32,500 nt of DNA, taken from NCBI GenBank assembly GCA_025435555.1, contig JAIWWG010000051.1, forward strand, positions 1 through 32,500. Direction: 5' to 3'. A program made the translations under genes and the position numbers. The number at the start of each line of letters is the position of its first letter. Position 1 is the first letter of the stretch. This stretch comes from Chytriomyces cf. hyalinus JEL632. Lineage: Eukaryota; Chytridiomycota; Chytridiomycetes; Chytridiales; Chytriomycetaceae. Under the pieces are notes generated by a model. The model saw only the letters and a program-made list of their open reading frames with translations, was not told where the DNA came from and ran no database searches. Of the stretch, positions 9,252-18,507 are shown piece after piece.

Positions 9252-11956
9252 ATGGTTTGTACATCTCCATATTTCTAAAAGCTGATGACCCAGCCGCATT
9301 GCTCATTCATCGCGCACATTCCATCCAGCACACGTCAAAGATATCCAATTGGGGACTTTGCACACTCCTCCTCGCTTCCATCTTGATTCCAATCACAACC
9401 GCCTTCCCCATCGCAAACGATTTCAAAGTCGCGCGTCGCCAGGCTGTTGTCGTTGTTGAAGACTCCAATGTCACGACAACAACGCACGTGCCGTATCTCA
9501 TTACTTTCCTTCTCCCGCAGTCACCAACTGGAACATCCACAACTGAAACCACGAGTACCAGCACTGAAACAACTTCAACCACAAGTGTGACGACAGAAAC
9601 GGAAACAACACTCACAACCACTACTTCCACGGAGACAACAACCATGGATACAACATCAACGTCGACAACTACAACAGCTGCGGATGAATCCTCAACCACC
9701 ATTTCGGACTCAGAAACAACATCTGAAGACTCCACTTCATCTGAATCTGCTGCGCCAGAAACTTCTGCGCCACAAGCGACTTCATCCACCACATCCACAA
9801 GCACCGAAACAACTAGTACACTAACATCATCCACAAGCACTTCGACTGAAACAACCGCAACAACAAGCACATCGACTTCGCAAACAACAAGCACAGGAAC
9901 TACTTCCACATCCACGGAAACCACTACAACTGCCACCACTTCAACTTCCACTTCAACGGAAACCACTACAACAACAAGCACTTCAACGGAAATTGAAGCC
10001 TTGCCCACGACTTCAACCAGCACAACAACTGCCAGAACATCAACTGAAACAACCAGCACGACCACTGAAACCACCACCACAGCAACTGTTTCTACAACCA
10101 CTTCCACTGAAACTACTTTGATCGAGCCTACATCGGTTGCATCGGAGACAGTCACGACCCCAACCACCTCAACAAGCACGACAACTGGCACAACGACCAC
10201 CTCAACCACATCGACCACGACAGAAACTGCAACAACCGCAACGACATCGACAAGCACATCAACTGCCACCACAACAACAGACAGAACCTCCACAACTTCA
10301 GAAACCACAACAACTGCGACTGTCAACACATTCACCTCAACTGCAACCACAAGCACCTCCACTTCGACTGCGACTTCAACCAGCGGAACCACATCCACAA
10401 GCACAGAAACTACGACCACCGCAACATTGACAACTTCTACGTCGACGGAAACTACTTCGACAGAAACTACAAGCACTACTACATCGACCGAGACAGCTGC
10501 CGCGGACACGTCTTCAGCACTCACAGACACAACCACTGTGGATATGTCGGAAACAGCCACAGCGGCCACAACCAGCACCTCTACAACCACAGCGACAACA
10601 ACCACAGACACTACAAGTACAACCACCGAAACAACAATCACTCCAACAACTTCCACTTCCACATCAACCGAAACAACTTCCACGAGCACATCTTCTGAGA
10701 CAACAACGACTGGAACGACATCGACGAGTACTTCCACATTTACAACTTCTACTTCGACTTCGACTTTGACAACGAGTACTTCGACATCTACATCCACTTC
10801 GACATCGACTTCGACTTCTACCTCCACAAGTACAAAGACATCAACAACATTTACTTCCACTTCTACATCAACAAGCACCACAACATCTACATCAACCAGC
10901 ACATCCACTTCTGCAACCACAAACACCATCAACAGCGCAACCACTATCCAGGTAAAAGGCACGACGACTACGGTAAGACAAAATGGAGTATTGATCTCAC
11001 CCCTCTGAACTAAACCAAAAAAACTATAAAATTAGGGTACAACCGCAACAACTACAGCAGATAGCTGCCCTATCGGTCCGTATGGACCCTTGCAACTGGA
11101 CGGAAGACCTTTTGTTGCGAATGCAGCAGCAGGAATTGGACTGGGAGTCCGCATTGTCTTGTGGGAATACAACGAATGGGACAGCTCCATGTTTGCATTT
11201 GACTGCAGGAACCGTCTCCGCATTAAAGCCGACCCAAGCCTGTGTATTGCCGCGACCAGGGCTTCTGCGGGACAAGTCATGTTCCTGGACTCGTGCGCAA
11301 GCATCAGCACGTTGACTTGGACCACAGATGGAAAGGGTCATTACTATCCAAATGGAAACACGGGGCTTTGCTTGGATGACTTTAACTTGAAGTTGAACAA
11401 TGGAAACTCGATTGGGCTGTGGAACTGCAACACTGGATTCAACCAGATCTGGACCATTCGCCCAATCTCGACACCCACAAGGACTGTTTCGAAAACTTCA
11501 ACGTTAAGCACTACGATGACAACTACGACAACGGCTGGGCCTGTTCCCACTTACTGTCCAATTGGCGACTATGCGCCACTGCAAGTCGACCAGCGACGTC
11601 TTATCGGCGCCGCAAAGGGGAACTCCACTTTACCAGGCACCAAGATTGTCCTATGGGAATACAACACGTTGGCAACCTCGCTGTTTGCGTTTGACTGCGT
11701 GAACCGACTCCACATCCAAGCAGACCCAACCATGTGCATTGGCGCCAACAGCATCAGTCAAGGAAACGTGCTGCTTCTTTTGGACTGTTCCAACACCAAT
11801 GCGATTCGATGGGCCGTTGCTGGGACAACGTTTGCGCCCATGGGGAAGCCGAAGCTTGTGATTGACAATTTCAACCTCGTGACTGCAAATGGGAACCCGA
11901 TTGGGTTGTGGAGTTATAACGGCGGATGGAACCAGAAGTGGGCCGAGGCTTTGTGA
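9252..11956 (+). CDS. Secreted mucin-like protein with two ricin-B-type beta-trefoil lectin domains
   Basis: Read as join(9252..9254, 9329..10972, 11036..11956), 855 residues. The first exon is only the start codon, followed by a 74-bp intron with donor GTTTGT. Residues 1-26 form a signal peptide (hydrophobic LCTLLLASILIPITTA). AFPIANDFKVARR (26-38) ends in a dibasic Kex2-like site. A short THVPYLITFLL segment precedes a Thr/Ser-rich stalk (about residues 67-545) built from TSTSTETTTT-like units, expected to be heavily O-glycosylated. Two lectin-like domains follow (about 560-690 and 722-855) joined by a Thr-rich linker. Both share LWEYN, FAFDC, NRL[RH]I[KQ]ADP and a closing NQ[IK]W, the QxW signature of the ricin-B fold. 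The probable location is extracellular or cell wall, binding glycans. An alternative donor GTAAAA at 10951 keeps frame and would drop 22 bp. Carbohydrate specificity is unknown. Confidence 0.85.
9530..10930 (+). repeat. Thr/Ser-rich degenerate tandem repeats (mucin stalk)
   Basis: Short imperfect repeats of ACA/ACC/ACT/ACG and TCA/TCC/AGC codons coding for TST, TETTTT and TSTST units. Copies differ a lot in codon choice, so the array is old or has been scrambled, unlike the near-identical blocks in the third gene. The same composition leaves a long open frame on the opposite strand that is not a gene. Confidence 0.75.
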
Positions 11957-12119
11957 GGATGCCCGTACTTTTTTTTTATTTTTTTTGGAGATTTTGAACT
12001 TTGTGACATTTAGCTGTTTGGACATAGTGTGGGGGATATGCTAGTTTTTGTTTTGAGATTTGCTGGAAGGCGATTTGTCTATTTTTCAGCGCTTGTTTTT
12101 TTATTTTTATTTTTTATTG

Positions 12120-12125
12120 AATAAA
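12120..12125 (+). terminator. Poly(A) signal AATAAA
   Basis: AATAAA about 160 bp after the stop of the first lectin gene, following T-rich sequence. It is the nearest consensus signal, 131 bp before the next gene's start codon. Confidence 0.4.
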
Positions 12126-12255
12126 TTCCCTTGTTCCAAAAACGAGTTTGTTGCCCGAGAAAACAGCGCAAAATTCTCGCCTCTGAATCTTGCCCGAGCT
12201 GCGAAGCAACAACAACGCACGTACGCTCTACTCTATCAGATCACCCACATTCACC

Positions 12256-12753
12256 ATGGTCAGTTCATACAACTCAACGCGTCACGGTATCCAACACACC
12301 AATTTGACACCAAAATCAGAGGACCCCTGTCAACTTCATCCTCCTCTCGTTGCGCGCAGCCATCGGCACTGGCACAGCCGCTTTCCCAGTCTCAAATGCT
12401 AAACATGCACGCCGTAATGCAGAAACATCAACAACCACGACTTGTCCACCAGACTTGCAAACGATCATCATCGACGTTGTGGGATCAAGCACGCGTTTGT
12501 ATCGACTATCGACCATCTTGGCGCGACACCAATTGTTTGTTCTTCGGTTGATCTCAATGCGAGCACATTTTCTTGTCTGATATGCGGTTTTTTTTTATTT
12601 GCCACACAGACCTTAGCGAGCACCACTACGAGCTGCACGACACTCGTGCCAACTATTCTCATCATTGAAGAAGCAGGCAAGTCGCCTGTCATCAAAACCA
12701 TCTACAATATGGGTGCAGTAGCGACGTTGACGAATGATCCTACGGGAGTCTGA
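12256..12753 (+). CDS. Short secreted paralogue of the mucin-lectin proteins, no lectin domain
   Basis: Read as join(12256..12258, 12320..12478, 12610..12753), 101 residues. As in both flanking paralogues, the start codon stands alone in the first exon, here with donor GTCAGT and a 61-bp intron. MRTPVNFILLSLRAAIGTGTA is a signal peptide and AAFPVSNAKHARR repeats the family's pro-segment with its dibasic end at residues 32-33. The rest is TSTTTTCPPDLQTIIID, then TTTSCTTLVPTILIIEEAGK and a tail ending NDPTGV. There is no long stalk and no QxW domain. The last intron (131 bp, donor GTGGGA) is the weak point. A better-looking donor 16 bp further (GTTTGT) changes frame and gives about 78 residues. 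It may be a functional short secreted protein or a decaying gene. Confidence 0.55.
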
Positions 12754-12881
12754 TGCGCGTTTGACTCCGGCTGTTTATTTCTTTTCAATTTGAATCAGCT
12801 GCTGTTTACTTTTACTTATGTATTCTGATGACACATGCTTCGTCGGGTCGGCGAAATGATAAGACGGCCCGTTTTCTTTCG

Positions 12882-12887
12882 AATAAA
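12882..12887 (+). terminator. Poly(A) signal AATAAA
   Basis: AATAAA about 130 bp after the stop of the short secreted paralogue. Confidence 0.4.
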
Positions 12888-14112
12888 ATGTAGATCGCAA
12901 CAGAGGTTGATATTGTTTTGTTTTGTTTCGATAGAACAAATAACAAGAGCGCACCAAACGAATGATCACAACGCGATGTAATCGAAGCTGAAAACAGCTG
13001 CTGATTGCAACAAAACGCCCCAAACTATTCTGATTATCGAGCCATGAAGGTTTTCTTGATCCTCCCTCGATTCATGAATAAAATCACAGTTGGAAAAACC
13101 AACCAGAAGTTGATAATGGCACAGGTGCTTTAACATGTTCAATGGAGCTGCAACGTATGGGACACTTGAACAGACAGCGTCCATCCGCTTCAGAGAAATT
13201 TGAGTTTCGGAAATTTCAGAAACACAACATCAAGGAGTTTCGACTGCTGCAAACCGGCCCCTATTCTCGCGCACCTTCTGTGCCTTCTCGACCGCATCTA
13301 AAATACCTTGCGCTCACTGCATTTACTCATTTGCTCAAGCGCAAAGCGGATAAAACAGCACAACATTTGCTGCTGTTGTCAATCATTGTCAATCTTGAAA
13401 ATCTATTCAGTTTTATTCACGCATACTTGAACATTTCAACCGAATTGAGATATATTAGACGGGATGAAACTGGTTGAGTGGCACTTTGCTGTTTTATACG
13501 ACATGAATGCAGGTTGGAGTGCCGCTCCTGCAAACACTGCGTCGAAGCAGTTTGCGATGAATTCCTTTTGACGTGGCTGGCGCAGCATGCTCGCCTGGTG
13601 TATGCATGAGTGAATGTAGTCTGACTCTTTTCCCTCGCGTCTTTTTGGCACCTCTCCTCTGCCTTCTCATCTAGTCCCACCTCACCTTCTGCCATCTCTC
13701 TCGTTTCATTGCGTTCACCTTTTCCATTTTCTTCTTCCATATTCTCTTTTGCAATAAAACTACTTTTCTTCGGGACAGCAAAACAGTCTCCTTCGGCGCT
13801 CGGCGCTTATCCATATCGCGGAGGTTCCCAAATTTTTTTTTGTTGTGTCCCAAAATTTCTTTTCAAACTCCGAAACCCGTCAAAACAACTTTGACAGGCC
13901 CAACTATCACCCACAAAAAAGTTCCAAAAAACAACCTCAGTTCTCTGCAACTGCCAAAAGAGGTACAATCAATCTGCAGCCGTGATATCAGCTCGCATCA
14001 AGCTCACTCCTCTCTTTCAATCGCACACGGCAGCACAGTCTTTTACGAATACCCAAACACATTCTTGAGCTACATCCCACTGAACTCAACATCAACTGAC
14101 CTTTGACGCGTC
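12888..14112. other. Intergenic region between second and third secreted genes
   Basis: About 1.2 kb with no supported gene. A pyrimidine-rich stretch (13630-13760) on the plus strand and A/C-rich sequence just before 14113 look like promoter and leader of the large mucin gene. Open frames here are short and lack recognisable content. Confidence 0.4.
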
Positions 14113-17100
14113 ATGGTTCGTGCGTGATTCCCAGTCACATCTGCGCAGTGCGCAGTGCTTTCAGCCAACTAAACACCCTCGAATGATTTGTAATTTAACA
14201 GATGCTTCTTCATTCCAACTCGCACGTTCTCAGTGCATTCTTGTGGGCATTGTGCCTCGTTTCCGTGTCTGACGCGTTCCCAATTGGGAATCACTTTAGA
14301 GTGGCTCGTCGTGCTGTCGAACCTTCTGTTGCCGCGGGTCCCAGCGCTGACGTTACACACCAGCCATACCTTGTGACCATTGTTGTCCACGCGTCCAGTC
14401 CCATCCCAGCGGTAATATCATATTCACCATGGATGCAATCATCGCACATGTTTGGATCTCTTATTGAATATTTTTTCGCATGCAGACGTCCACCTCAGTG
14501 TCTTCAGACACGGCAACCTCAGCCCCCACTGAAACAACTGGCAAAACTGAAACAACTGCCACAACTGAAACAACTGCCACAACTGGAACGACTTCGACTT
14601 CAACCGGAACCTCGACGACTGCAACCACAACAACTGGAACAACTTCCACATCTACGGGAACCACCAGTACATCCACAACATCGTCTTCCACTTCCACAAA
14701 AACCACTTCAACAAGCACGTCTTCGACAAGCACTGCAACTACGAGCACGAGCACTTCATCAACTTCGACTGGTACGACCACCACAGGCACCACGTCAACA
14801 TCCACTGGAACAACTACAACGGAAACAACGTCCACCAGCACCGAGACAACAACCACCGGAACCACAACTGAAAGTGAAACAGTGTCGAATTCTGAGGTGT
14901 GAATCAATTCCATTATCATTATTGGCTTTCCCTTTTCATATATAGGCCTCATACTGACTCCATTATACAACGACAGTCCACCTCATCAGTCGAAGCCACC
15001 ACATCAACTGAGTCCATCTCCACCGAAACATCGACGGAACCACCCACCACTGCCGCGACATCGACTTCGACTGAGACGACAACCACAGAGACAACTTCCA
15101 CAAGCACTTCGACTGAAACAACTACCACTGCCACCACTTCCACTTCAACTGCAACAACAAGCACTGGAACCACTAGCACAAGCACTGCCACAACAACCAC
15201 TGGAACAACATCCACCACAACAGCGACGACGTCAACAACAACAGCCACTACAACCACCGGAACCACTTCCACCTCCACTGAAACAACTTCAACCAGCACC
15301 TCGACTGCGACGACAACCACTGGAACCACTTCCACCACCACCGAAACAACTTCAACAAGCACCTCGACTGCCACCACAACCACTGCAACTACGTCCACCA
15401 GCACTGAAACCACGACTACAGCTACTACCTCCACCAGCACTACGACCGGCACAACGACCACTGCAACCACTTCCACAACCACTGAAACAACCACCACCGG
15501 CACAACAAGTACCACTACACAAACAACCACCACCGGAACTACTTCAACAACTACTGCGACCACCACAACTGGAACCACTTCCACTACAACTGGAACCACG
15601 ACAACAGCGACTACGTCCACCACCACCGAAACAACTACAACTGGCACCACCTCAACCAGCACAGAAACCACCACCACCGCGACCACTTCTACCAGCACTT
15701 CGACTGGAACTACCACCACTGCCACCACTTCAACCAGCACTGAAACTACAACCACTGCTACCACTTCCACGTCTACATCTACTGCGACGACAACCACCGC
15801 GACAACATCAACTAGCACGGAAACCACCACCACTGCCACAACGTCGACCTCCACTTCAACAGCCACGACAACCACCGCCACCACTTCGACCACTACGGAA
15901 ACAACCACCACCGGTACCACAACCACCGATACTACATCCACGTCCACTGAGACCACCTCCACTTCCACCACGAGCGTCACTTACTCGACGAGCACCACCA
16001 CAACCGCCACATTCACGGTCACCACCTCCACTTCAACTACATCGACGGCAACTACCACCACAGCCACGACATCCACATCCACTGAAACCACCACCACAGG
16101 AACTACTTCCACCTCCACTTCGACTGGAACAACCACCACTGCCACCACTTCAACTTCCACTGAAACAACAACCACGGGTACAACTTCGACCAGCACCACC
16201 ACCGGCACAACCACCACTGCCACCACATCTACAACAACTGAAACGACCACCACTGGAACAACTAGCACCACAACTGCTACCACTACTACTGCTACCACAA
16301 CAACTGGGACAACAAGTACCACCACTGGAACAACCACAACTGGAACCACGTCTACCACCACTCAAACAGCTACAACTGGAACGACGTCCACCACGACTGA
16401 AACAACAACAACAGCAACCACCTCAACAACCACTGCTACCACTACCACTGAAACTACGAGTACCACCACTGAAACCACCACAACTGGAACCACTAGCACT
16501 ACTACTGCCACCACCACAACTGGAACTACTTCAACCACCACTGCCACCACCACAACAGGAACAACTTCAACCACCACTCAAACAACCACCACCGGAACTA
16601 CTTCAACAACTACTGCGACCACCACAACTGGAACCACTTCCACTACAACTGGAACCACGACAACAGCGACTACGTCCACCACCACCGAAACAACTACAAC
16701 TGGCACCACCTCAACCAGCACAGAAACCACCACCACCGCGACCACTTCTACCAGCACTTCGACTGGAACTACCACCACTGCCACCACTTCAACCAGCACC
16801 GAAACTACAACCACTGCTACCACTTCCACGTCTACATCTACTGCGACGACAACCACCGCGACAACATCAACTAGCACGGAAACCACCACCACTGCCACAA
16901 CGTCGACCTCCACTTCAACAGCCACGACAACCACCGCCACCACTTCGACCACTACGGAAACAACCACCACCGGTACCACAACCACCGATACTACATCCAC
17001 GTCCACTGAGACCACCTCCACTTCCACCACGAGCGTCACTTACTCGACGAGCACCACCACAACCGCCACATTCACGGTCACCACCTCCACTTCAACTACA

Positions 17101-18507
17101 TCGACGGCAACTACCACCACAGCCACGACATCCACATCCACTGAAACCACCACCACAGGAACTACTTCCACCTCCACTTCGACTGGAACAACCACCACTG
17201 CCACCACTTCAACTTCCACTGAAACAACAACCACGGGTACAACTTCGACCAGCACCACCACCGGCACAACCACCACTGCCACCACATCTACAACAACTGA
17301 AACGACCACCACTGCAACAACTAGCACCACTACTGGTACCACCTCAACTGGAACAACGAGCACAAGCACTGGAACGACTACAACTGCGACTACTTCCACC
17401 ACTACGGGTACCACTACAACTGCAACCACCAGCACAACGACTGAAACAGCGACAACTGGCACCACTTCGACTACAACGGCTACTACATCCACTGGAACTA
17501 CTTCCACGACAACGGGTACCACCACAACTGGAACTACTTCAACTACGACTGGTACAACAACCACTGGCACAACTAGCACGACTACTGCTACCACCACCAC
17601 TGGAACCACAAGCACCTCTACTGGAACCACCTCTACTGGAACCACCTCTACTACCACGGTCACTACTACAACTGGAACCACTAGCACGACCACTGCCACC
17701 ACCACCACTGGAACAACCAGTACCTCCACTGAAACCACCACTACTGAGACGGCTTCCGCTACCACCGAAACCACCACCGGCGCTTCTACAAGCACATGTT
17801 CTGAGGAGACTATTTTCCTGACCATTTATGATGATCAAGTTTCGTCGACCAGCGCGGGAGGCAACATGGCCACAACCACGACCGAAACTACTACAACAAT
17901 GACTGAAACTACCACAACTGCAACTACATCTACTTCCACTGCAACCACCACCACGGCCACAACCACCACTTCCACTGCTACAACCACTACTGAAACTACA
18001 AGCACAATGACCGAAACTACCAGCACAACCACCACATTCACCACAACCACTTCCACGGGAACTACTTCTACATCTACCACAAGCACCACCACCGCTCTGG
18101 GAGCCGCTTACTACCCGCTTAAAGTCGCTGGTTGGTCATTGACGGCCCGTTCCAACAACTCGGCCATCACACAAGGAACCAGCCTCGTGATTGACAACTA
18201 CTCGACCGACACTGCGTCTCTGTTCACGCTCTCCTCCAAGAACGTGTTGATCCACAAGGCTAGTGGTCTCTGCGTTGCAACCGTGCCTGTTGGCGGCTCA
18301 TACAATGGCGTGACGCTTACACTGCAGAGCTGCACGAACCCATACGCGGCGCCATGGGTGATTAACAACAATGTGTTCAAGATTGTTGTCCCATTGAAGG
18401 GCGCGTATTGCATGGACTTGTATGGCGAGTACACAAACTCTGGAAACAAGATTCAAGTGTACAGTTGTACAAACAAGTGGAACCAAAAGTGGGAGTTGGC
18501 TTATTAG
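14113..18507 (+). CDS. Giant secreted Thr/Ser-rich mucin with C-terminal ricin-B-type lectin domain
   Basis: Read as join(14113..14115, 14202..14411, 14486..14896, 14977..18507), 1384 residues, all introns phase 0. The start codon is again an exon by itself (donor GTTCGT, 86-bp intron), although an ATG also opens the next exon. The signal peptide is followed by AFPIGNHFRVARR (residues 26-38), aligned position for position with the first paralogue, and THQPYLVTIVV matches its THVPYLITFLL. The stalk of roughly 1150 residues is mainly 12-residue units of the form [GA]TTST[ST]T[AEGQ]TTTT. It is broken by two SVTYSTSTTTTATFTV islands and one non-repetitive patch with Cys (CSEETIFLTIYDD). The last 135 residues form a single lectin-like domain (GTSLVIDNY, NVLIHKASGLCV, CMDLYGEYTNSGNKIQVYSC, closing NQKWELAY). 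It probably acts as a long O-glycosylated surface adhesin. Confidence 0.83.
15520..16271 (+). repeat. Internal direct duplication, copy 1 (752 bp)
   Basis: Matches 16579..17330 at an offset of 1059 bp (353 codons, in frame). By eye I find two mismatches: T at 15741 against C, and G at 16256 against C, the latter changing Gly to Ala. It covers one SVTYSTSTTTTATFTV island and flanking 12-residue units. Confidence 0.9.
16579..17330 (+). repeat. Internal direct duplication, copy 2 (752 bp)
   Basis: Second copy of 15520..16271. The 307 bp between copies (16272..16578) is similar Thr-rich repeat but not a copy of the sequence before copy 1. The identity contrasts with the scrambled codon use of the rest of the stalk, so the duplication is recent or has been homogenised by gene conversion. 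Confidence 0.9.

What the first reader, a model, noticed from the sequence alone, without database searches (positions are those of the whole stretch)
9252..18507. Cluster of three secreted paralogues sharing signal peptide and pro-segment but differing in the mature part
All three begin with a signal peptide followed by AFP[IV]xN...ARR, a probable Kex2-processed pro-segment. In the first and third genes it aligns residue for residue (26-38). After it come a two-lectin mucin, a stalkless lectin-less 101-residue form, and a giant single-lectin mucin. A fixed secretion/processing cassette in front of variable mature modules looks like a locally evolving surface adhesin or glycan-binding system. 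I know of no described family with this exact architecture.
Basis: partly seen in the sequence, partly recalled or inferred. Interest (0 to 1): 0.75.

Follow-up and report, generated by a model that had tools for sequence, protein, structure and literature searches.

The report
Fungal mucin-lectin adhesive gene cluster
A flagellated fungus carries a conserved set of three neighbouring genes for probably secreted proteins, two of them very long Thr/Ser-rich stalks tipped with sugar-binding domains, which most likely serve as a surface glue; the parts are familiar, the combination less so.

Summary
Corrections: g1 and g3 are paralogues along their whole length (stalk, then two or one ricin-B lectins), and the 101-residue g2 is only one possible gene model. 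'Fixed cassette, locally evolving modules' is not supported: the same g1-g2-g3 set occurs three times in this genome of a flagellated fungus, the lectins are the most constrained part (omega 0.03-0.13; cassette 0.16-0.34), and stalk length is what varies. Best explanation: secreted lectin-mucin adhesives without a GPI anchor, probably cut by a Kex2-like protease, binding glycans through about one canonical site per lectin domain. A conserved strand-like segment just after the processing site (PY[LI][VI]T[FI]) is the strongest of the 2-5 hydrophobic patches outside the lectins and may drive self-association. Nearest known kind: fission-yeast Ser/Thr-rich, non-GPI adhesins with C-terminal lectin-like domains. 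Everything functional is inferred: no RNA, protein or named relative genomes were available, and structure prediction was off.

The parts
9252..9254 (+). g1 exon 1: start codon alone, followed by a 74-nt intron (9255-9328)
   Evidence: ATG|GTTTGT; position conserved in 3 of 3 copies
9329..9403 (+). g1 signal peptide (rest of it)
   Evidence: hydrophobic run ending ITTA before FP; read by eye from the translation, no predictor run
9404..9439 (+). g1 pro-segment FPIANDFKVARR ending in a dibasic site
   Evidence: alignments of the copies
9494..9514 (+). g1 post-pro hydrophobic strand YLITFLL
   Evidence: conserved with g3; hydrophobic hot spot (scale recalled)
9521..10972 (+). g1 Thr/Ser stalk (continues at 11036-11065)
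   Evidence: 494 residues, 75% T+S
10973..11035 (+). g1 intron between stalk and lectins, phase 0
   Evidence: GTAAGA...TTAG; equivalent introns modelled in C111 and C81
11066..11452 (+). g1 ricin-B lectin domain 1
   Evidence: Pfam PF00652 over cut-off; match 11144-11452
11555..11941 (+). g1 ricin-B lectin domain 2; gene ends 11956
   Evidence: 62 of 130 columns identical to domain 1; PF00652 matches this frame in three stretches
12256..12258 (+). g2 exon 1: start codon alone, then a 61-nt intron
12320..12546 (+). g2 exon 2: signal peptide, pro-segment (12383-12415) and first motif copy; 3' border uncertain
   Evidence: alignment with C111 and C81; the window copy differs in length by one nucleotide in this exon
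12610..12753 (+). g2 exon 3: second motif copy (SCTTLVPTILIIEEAGKSPVIKTIYN...)
   Evidence: 77% identical to the C111 copy over query residues 69-117
14113..14115 (+). g3 exon 1: start codon alone, then an 86-nt intron (exon 2 itself begins with another ATG)
14202..14411 (+). g3 exon 2: signal peptide, pro-segment (14277-14312), post-pro strand YLVTIVVHAS (14367-14396)
14486..14896 (+). g3 exon 3: Thr/Ser stalk
14977..18108 (+). g3 exon 4: Thr/Ser stalk (1187 residues in all, 80% T+S); start of this exon tentative
   Evidence: the acceptor chosen differs from that of the other copies
15510..16260 (+). near-identical internal duplication within the g3 stalk, second copy 1059 bases further on
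   Evidence: 60-base windows 0.95-1.0 identical at offset 1059 (0.90 in the last one)
18109..18507 (+). g3 ricin-B lectin domain and stop; no hydrophobic tail after it
   Evidence: PF00652, 39 bits against a cut-off of 29; ends NQKWELAY

Best explanation
The cluster encodes secreted lectin-mucin adhesives of a flagellated (zoosporic) fungus. The signal peptide sends the chains out; a Kex2-like protease removes the short FPIxNxF[KR]VARR pro-segment; the 500-1200-residue Thr/Ser stalk is O-glycosylated into an extended brush; the C-terminal ricin-B domain(s) bind galactose- or xylan-type glycans through about one canonical site per domain. With no GPI or membrane tail, the proteins stay in the wall or cyst coat non-covalently, through the lectins and probably through the hydrophobic strand at the new N-terminus. 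g1 (two lectins) could cross-link, g3 (one lectin on the longest stalk of the window) could reach out, and g2, with its short hydrophobic strands, would be a small partner. Shown: architecture, conservation of the set in three block copies, constraint on the lectins. Inferred: secretion, processing, glycosylation, sugar specificity, role in adhesion, stage of expression, any role of g2.
For: Ricin-B domains over Pfam cut-off in g1 and g3; solved relatives by sequence are CBM13 modules of glycosidases and galactose-binding lectins, including B chains of plant ricin-type proteins. The last repeat of each domain keeps the pattern CxD or xID ... GN ... NQxW. Strong purifying selection on the lectins (omega 0.03-0.13, 9 comparisons). 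Stalks 75-80% T+S in 6 of 6 g1/g3 copies. Dibasic end of the pro-segment in 9 of 9 copies, and a convertase P-domain gene in the genome. No hydrophobic C-terminal tail in 6 of 6. Aminoadipate reductase over cut-off and IFT46 indicate a flagellated fungus. In the chytrid B. salamandrivorans a ricin-B-like lectin is reported in galactose-mediated chemotaxis and adhesion (PMC8490390, passages).
Against: No transcript, proteome or binding data. Signal peptides and Kex2 sites were read by eye, with no predictor. Secreted lectins can also serve defence or nutrition. Only one of three repeats per domain looks canonical, so binding may be weak. The whole g3 last exon gives no Pfam match at all; the lectin shows only when its part is scanned alone or in the genome search. 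g2's place in the system rests on its cassette and neighbourhood alone.
Confidence: 0.6

Rival explanations
1. Structural coat mucins: the proteins mainly protect and hydrate the sporangium, cyst or rhizoid wall, and the lectins only tether them to the fungus's own wall glycans; adhesion to outside substrates is secondary.
For: No GPI or membrane anchor, so something must tether them; the lectins are highly constrained, as fits a fixed self-ligand better than changing outside targets. Mucins secreted by Phytophthora zoospores and cysts are discussed as possibly protective (PMC7718214, passages).
Against: Does not by itself explain the tandem lectins of g1, or the lectin-bearing fourth gene of the same region, which may also carry CBM5/12-like repeats.
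Confidence: 0.25
2. Defence or antagonism lectins: secreted ricin-B proteins that bind and harm grazers or competitors.
For: Fungal ricin-B lectins can be toxic to animals and worms (recalled); ricin-like proteins of Mucor act as toxins (mentioned in PMC11291939, passage).
Against: No enzymatic or ribosome-inactivating domain found in the exons scanned (Pfam); giant stalks are unusual for soluble toxic lectins (recalled).
Confidence: 0.08
3. Substrate-targeting scaffold for nutrition: secreted polymers that hold enzymes or nutrients at plant or algal polysaccharides (CBM13-like use).
For: Solved relatives include CBM13-type modules of xylanases, an arabinofuranosidase and an alpha-galactosidase.
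Against: No catalytic or docking domain found by Pfam in the exons scanned.
Confidence: 0.12

Closest known systems
Fission-yeast Ser/Thr-rich adhesin family (Map4, Mam3 and relatives; Linder and Gustafsson), as summarised in PMC6023273
   Same: Signal peptide, Ser/Thr-rich repeats, no GPI signal, often a C-terminal lectin-like domain, possible wall attachment through beta-aggregation-prone sequences (passages).
   Different: No DIPSY match by Pfam here (that Pfam holds a DIPSY model is recalled); the lectin here is ricin-B (their lectin-like fold was not compared); a shared pro-segment cassette, an ATG-only first exon and a three-gene cluster; a flagellated fungus.
Batrachochytrium salamandrivorans ricin-B-like lectins (PMC8490390, PMC9926174; passages)
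   Same: Ricin-B lectins of a chytrid, reported in galactose binding, chemotaxis and adhesion.
   Different: The passages seen describe no stalk, pro-segment or cluster; their sequences were not compared.
GPI-anchored Flo/Als adhesins
   Same: Long Ser/Thr-rich stalks and hydrophobic strands that may self-associate (PMC6023273, passages).
   Different: No GPI tail here; the ligand domain is at the C-terminus, not the N-terminus.
Oomycete mucin-like zoospore/cyst proteins such as PPMUCL1-3 (cited in PMC7718214, passages)
   Same: Mucin-like proteins secreted around zoospore encystment and biofilm formation.
   Different: Unrelated lineage; no lectin domain is mentioned in the passages seen.

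Membership tests
Ricin-B lectin / CBM13 domain | Pfam PF00652 match over the curated cut-off | tested here: met
   g1 69.3 bits in three stretches, g3 C-terminal part 39 bits, cut-off 29. The g3 last exon as a whole gave none
Ricin-B lectin / CBM13 domain | Three QxW repeats with sugar-contact Asp and Asn-Gln | tested here: inconclusive
   Only the last repeat of each domain keeps the full pattern; judged by sequence, no structure
Ricin-B lectin / CBM13 domain | Glycan binding | not testable with these tools
   needs purified protein
Non-GPI Ser/Thr-rich adhesins of fission-yeast type | Ser/Thr-rich stalk plus C-terminal lectin-like domain, no GPI tail | tested here: met
   6 of 6 g1/g3 copies, tail judged by eye
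Non-GPI Ser/Thr-rich adhesins of fission-yeast type | DIPSY domain (lineage-specific in Schizosaccharomyces) | tested here: not met
   No such Pfam match in the g1 and g3 exons of the window; so it works like one but is not filed as a member
GPI-anchored Flo/Als adhesins | C-terminal GPI-addition signal | tested here: not met
   Proteins end NQKW[AE]EA[LF] and NQKWELAY right after the lectin
Ricin-like toxins | Ribosome-inactivating A domain | tested here: not met
   Only ricin-B lectin matches in the g1 and g3 exons of the window
Kex2-processed secreted protein | Dibasic site shortly after the signal peptide; a convertase in the genome | tested here: met
   RR in 9 of 9 copies; P_proprotein domain at C68 (91.7 bits, cut-off 21) and two further matches on C123
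Kex2-processed secreted protein | Actual cleavage | not testable with these tools
   needs N-terminal sequencing
Amyloid-type fungal adhesins | Short hydrophobic beta-aggregation segment | tested here: inconclusive
   A segment at the same place in 6 of 6 g1/g3 copies by a simplified AGGRESCAN-like score whose scale was recalled; such predictors over-call

The most novel reading that the evidence does not exclude
A protease-armed glue: removal of the conserved pro-segment frees an N-terminal beta strand (PY[LI][VI]T[FI]) that nucleates amyloid-like assembly of giant lectin-mucins, and g2, a small protein with two hydrophobic strand motifs behind the same pro-segment, co-assembles as nucleator or chain-linker. 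The cluster would then be a self-assembling, glycan-binding cement of flagellated fungi with separate 'brush' and 'seed' subunits under one processing switch.
Probability: 0.12. Interest if true: 0.75.

Novelty: new variant of a known kind. Interest (0 to 1): 0.42.

Why it matters
How chytrid-like fungi stick to their substrates is poorly known at the molecular level: the 2018 review seen here says adhesins outside the Ascomycota are rarely described (PMC6023273, passages). A conserved, duplicated cluster that joins mucin-like stalks, lectins and a processing cassette gives testable candidates for a substrate or coat glue, and a concrete hypothesis (processing-triggered self-assembly) about how it sets.

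Tried and rejected
Rejected: local shuffling of modules behind a fixed cassette (same architectures in the three block copies; the cassette less constrained than the lectins). Rejected: cassette match at C229 (E=0.0025); the surrounding DNA shows nothing like a member (by eye). Rejected: GPI-anchored adhesin; ricin-like toxin. Not established: that g2's motifs are homologous to the post-pro strand of g1/g3. Without the pro-segment the four g2 comparisons give z=1.1-2.3, with 66-280 of 2000 shuffles reaching the score. The internal repeat of g2 is weak (z=3.3 and 4.2; 17 and 6 of 2000). Pfam gives g2 nothing but a sub-cut-off match of its last exon to PF05047, a mitochondrial ribosomal and complex-I domain (15.5 and 12.9 bits, cut-off 26.6), which I take for chance. 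CBM5/12-like repeats in the fourth gene lie below Pfam's cut-off (16 against 26.2 bits), and a PDB sequence search gave no support. A stalk query of the genome returned only cluster stalks (9 of 9 matches; 46 candidates scored), but it also missed the fourth gene's stalks, so it does not show that stalks are rare.

Alternative gene models: the 101-residue g2 uses an early donor; the relatives argue for a longer exon; unsettled without RNA. The g3 exon-4 acceptor in the window is tentative.

Led nowhere: identifying the species. Literature searches listed no stalk-lectin family in chytrids, judged from titles and abstract openings of capped lists.
Full report
WHERE IT IS. The window is contig C190 (bases 1-32500) of a 37.8-Mb genome in 242 contigs, held without a name. 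It is a fungus by an aminoadipate-reductase match over the curated cut-off (C40, in several pieces; 0 of 14 control genomes over the cut-off) and a flagellated organism by IFT46 (three exon matches on C35; 0 of 14 controls). That these two marks together point to a zoosporic fungus is established knowledge; the species stays unknown.

GENE MODELS. g1: 9252-9254, 9329-10972, 11036-11956 (855 residues). g3: 14113-14115, 14202-14411, 14486-14896, 14977-18507 (1384 residues; start of the last exon tentative). g2: 12256-12258, 12320-about 12546 (3' border unsettled), 12610-12753. The six g1 and g3 models (three copies each) read without internal stops. In 9 of 9 copies of the three genes the start codon is followed at once by GTNNGT and an intron of 61-86 bases, so the first coding exon is the ATG alone (in g3 the next exon happens to begin with another ATG). 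This shared position is the best single argument that g2 is a true paralogue, because its sequence similarity is short. No RNA evidence was available.

THE SHARED CASSETTE. After the signal peptide come AFPIANDFKVARR (g1), AFPIGNHFRVARR (g3) and AFPVSNAKHARR (g2) in the window. g1 and g3 remain alike beyond the dibasic site up to THxPY[LI][VI]T: post-pro z=8.1 for the C111 copies (0 of 2000 shuffles) and 4.0 for the window copies (3 of 2000). For g2 the similarity rests on the pro-segment; past it the comparison is not significant (z=1.1-2.3). Four protein queries of the genome at E up to 10 gave 7, 6, 6 and 3 matches; 21 of these 22 lie in the cluster's genes and one (C229) looks unrelated. 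A motif scan of the 179,000 bases fetched, a set chosen around lectins and cassettes, gave 6 hits, all in cluster genes. The g1 and g3 queries found none of the three g2 copies, so wider use of so short a segment is not excluded.

THREE COPIES OF THE WHOLE BLOCK. g1, g2 and g3 recur in this order on C111 (block about 246-274 kb, reversed) and, split over two contigs, on C81 (g1, g2) and C30 (g3). That C81 and C30 are two parts of one copy is inferred: their alignments to C111 end within about 40 bases of each other, though the first 2.9 kb of C30 do not fit. The ThiJ/PfpI-like gene after g3 is present in C111 and C30; the NAD(P)-binding gene lies beside g1 in C111 and C81 too, but in the opposite orientation. 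C81 and C30 are 87-89% identical in DNA to C111 over their long alignments; the main alignments of the window to C111 are 65-74% identical (120 of 461 rows printed). A gene at window 31 kb still matches C111 near 210 kb. Pairwise dS is 0.36-0.74 between the window and the other copies and 0.14-0.36 between C111 and C81/C30, the lowest being g2. The haspin kinase of the window gave one match in the genome, and the RNA-polymerase domain PF00562 lies at four loci, so this looks like a partly duplicated, hybrid or highly heterozygous genome; I did not resolve which.

WHAT IS CONSTRAINED. Lectin omega is 0.03-0.13 (9 comparisons), SP-to-strand cassette of g1 and g3 0.16-0.34 (6 comparisons). g2 evolves faster: dN/dS 0.088/0.143 between C111 and C81 (whole protein), 0.147/0.739 (exon 3) and 0.254/0.618 (trimmed exon 2) between window and C111. 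Stalk length is what changes: g1 494, 978 and 862 residues; g3 1187, 1089 and 1102 (window, C111, third copy). The g3 stalk in the window holds a near-identical duplication of about 750 bases at offset 1059.

THE LECTINS. A genome search listed 20 PF00652 matches, a lower bound: 8 in g1/g3 copies, 2 in a fourth gene of the same region, 10 elsewhere. The 10 elsewhere lie at 8 loci; none of these 8 has a frame of 70 residues or more with over 40% Thr+Ser from 4.5 kb before to 0.6 kb after the lectin on its strand, so the stalk-lectin design looks confined to this region; a stalk further off would be missed. The last repeat of each domain is canonical, the first two look degenerate. Scanned alone the g3 lectin scores 39 bits, but the whole last exon gives no Pfam match, presumably because of the stalk's composition. 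Solved relatives by sequence are CBM13-type modules of xylanases, an arabinofuranosidase and an alpha-galactosidase, a 29-kDa galactose-binding lectin and B chains of plant ricin-type proteins. Sugar preference (galactose or xylan type) is inference from these.

THE POST-PRO STRAND. With an AGGRESCAN-like score (rule seen in passages of PMC1828741; amino-acid scale recalled; my version simplified, patches with a mean over 0.2 listed), the segment YL[IV]TFL or Y[LI]VTI[IV]V comes out at the same place in 6 of 6 g1/g3 copies and is the strongest of the 2-5 patches outside the lectins in each, narrowly so in two g3 copies (0.53 against 0.52 for ETIFLTI). The other patches are QAVVVVED in the window g1; TIEIA and patches near the stalk end in the other g1 copies; SVSL[AT], IVTSS(I), TATFTVTTS and ETIFLTI in g3 copies. 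The two g2 relatives scored have patches in both motif copies (around TIIIDVV, and TILIIEA). The review seen here reports such segments in 21 of 24 adhesins by TANGO, and warns that predictors over-call (PMC6023273, passages).

A FOURTH GENE. On C111 (220.1-221.0 kb) and C30 (37.2-38.1 kb) lies another probably secreted gene: a signal-peptide exon, two possible CBM5/12-like repeats (one weak Pfam match, below cut-off), a ricin-B domain over cut-off, then a stalk frame of 559 (C30) to over 1350 (C111, running off the fetched piece) residues. Its protein finds no match on the window's contig at E up to 1. It lacks the AFP pro-segment in the exons seen, and its lectin precedes the stalk.

MECHANISM. 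Steps shown: shared 5' structure, dibasic end, stalk composition, lectin homology, absence of a hydrophobic C-terminal tail, conservation of the set. Steps inferred: secretion, Kex2 cleavage (a P-domain convertase gene exists), O-glycosylation, wall or matrix retention by lectin and strand, glycan binding, role in attachment or coat. Rivals: protective coat mucin (0.25), nutritional scaffold (0.12), defence lectin (0.08).

COMPARISON WITH THE KNOWN. It works most like the fission-yeast non-GPI Ser/Thr-rich adhesins with C-terminal lectin-like domains (PMC6023273, passages), but no DIPSY domain was found, so it is not filed there. A B. salamandrivorans ricin-B-like lectin is reported in galactose-mediated adhesion (PMC8490390, passages; PMC9926174, passages). 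The R. globosum chitin study mentions CBM5 but neither 'lectin' nor 'adhes' as a word start (PMC12115818, term search). Seven answered literature searches listed no paper that, by title and abstract opening, describes this architecture; most lists were capped and the library holds open-licence papers only. Verdict: a new variant of a known kind, moderately interesting, with one bold testable idea (processing-triggered self-assembly).

Noticed in passing
L035 4120-5019 (C111:220119-221018) and L034 4181-5077 (C30:37180-38076): Fourth probably secreted ricin-B gene with a giant Thr/Ser stalk and possible CBM5/12-like repeats, in the same region of two block copies and not found on the window's contig.
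   Followed up: partly
window 9252, 12256, 14113 and their copies: First coding exon is the start codon alone (ATG then GTNNGT), conserved in 9 of 9 gene copies.
   Followed up: partly
window 7.7-32.4 kb against C111:209-274 kb and C81/C30: Block present three times at two levels of divergence (dS 0.14-0.36 and 0.36-0.74), with the NAD(P)-binding gene inverted in the window relative to the others: partly duplicated, hybrid or highly heterozygous genome.
   Followed up: partly
window 15510-16260 and 16569-17319: Near-identical duplication inside the g3 stalk, probably a recent change of stalk length.
   Followed up: no
window 12320-12546: The window copy of g2 differs by one nucleotide in length from two relatives inside this exon; decay, another splice form or a sequencing error cannot be told apart.
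   Followed up: partly
window 20.2-24 kb; L027: Hydrophobic, membrane-like proteins in neighbouring related copies, also on C30; the two frames scanned have no Pfam match.
   Followed up: no
G000:C165:44613-69678 and C180:26288-38210: Many sub-cut-off matches to the adenylating aminoadipate reductase model, several in long open frames: possible peptide-synthetase-like gene arrays in a flagellated fungus.
   Followed up: no
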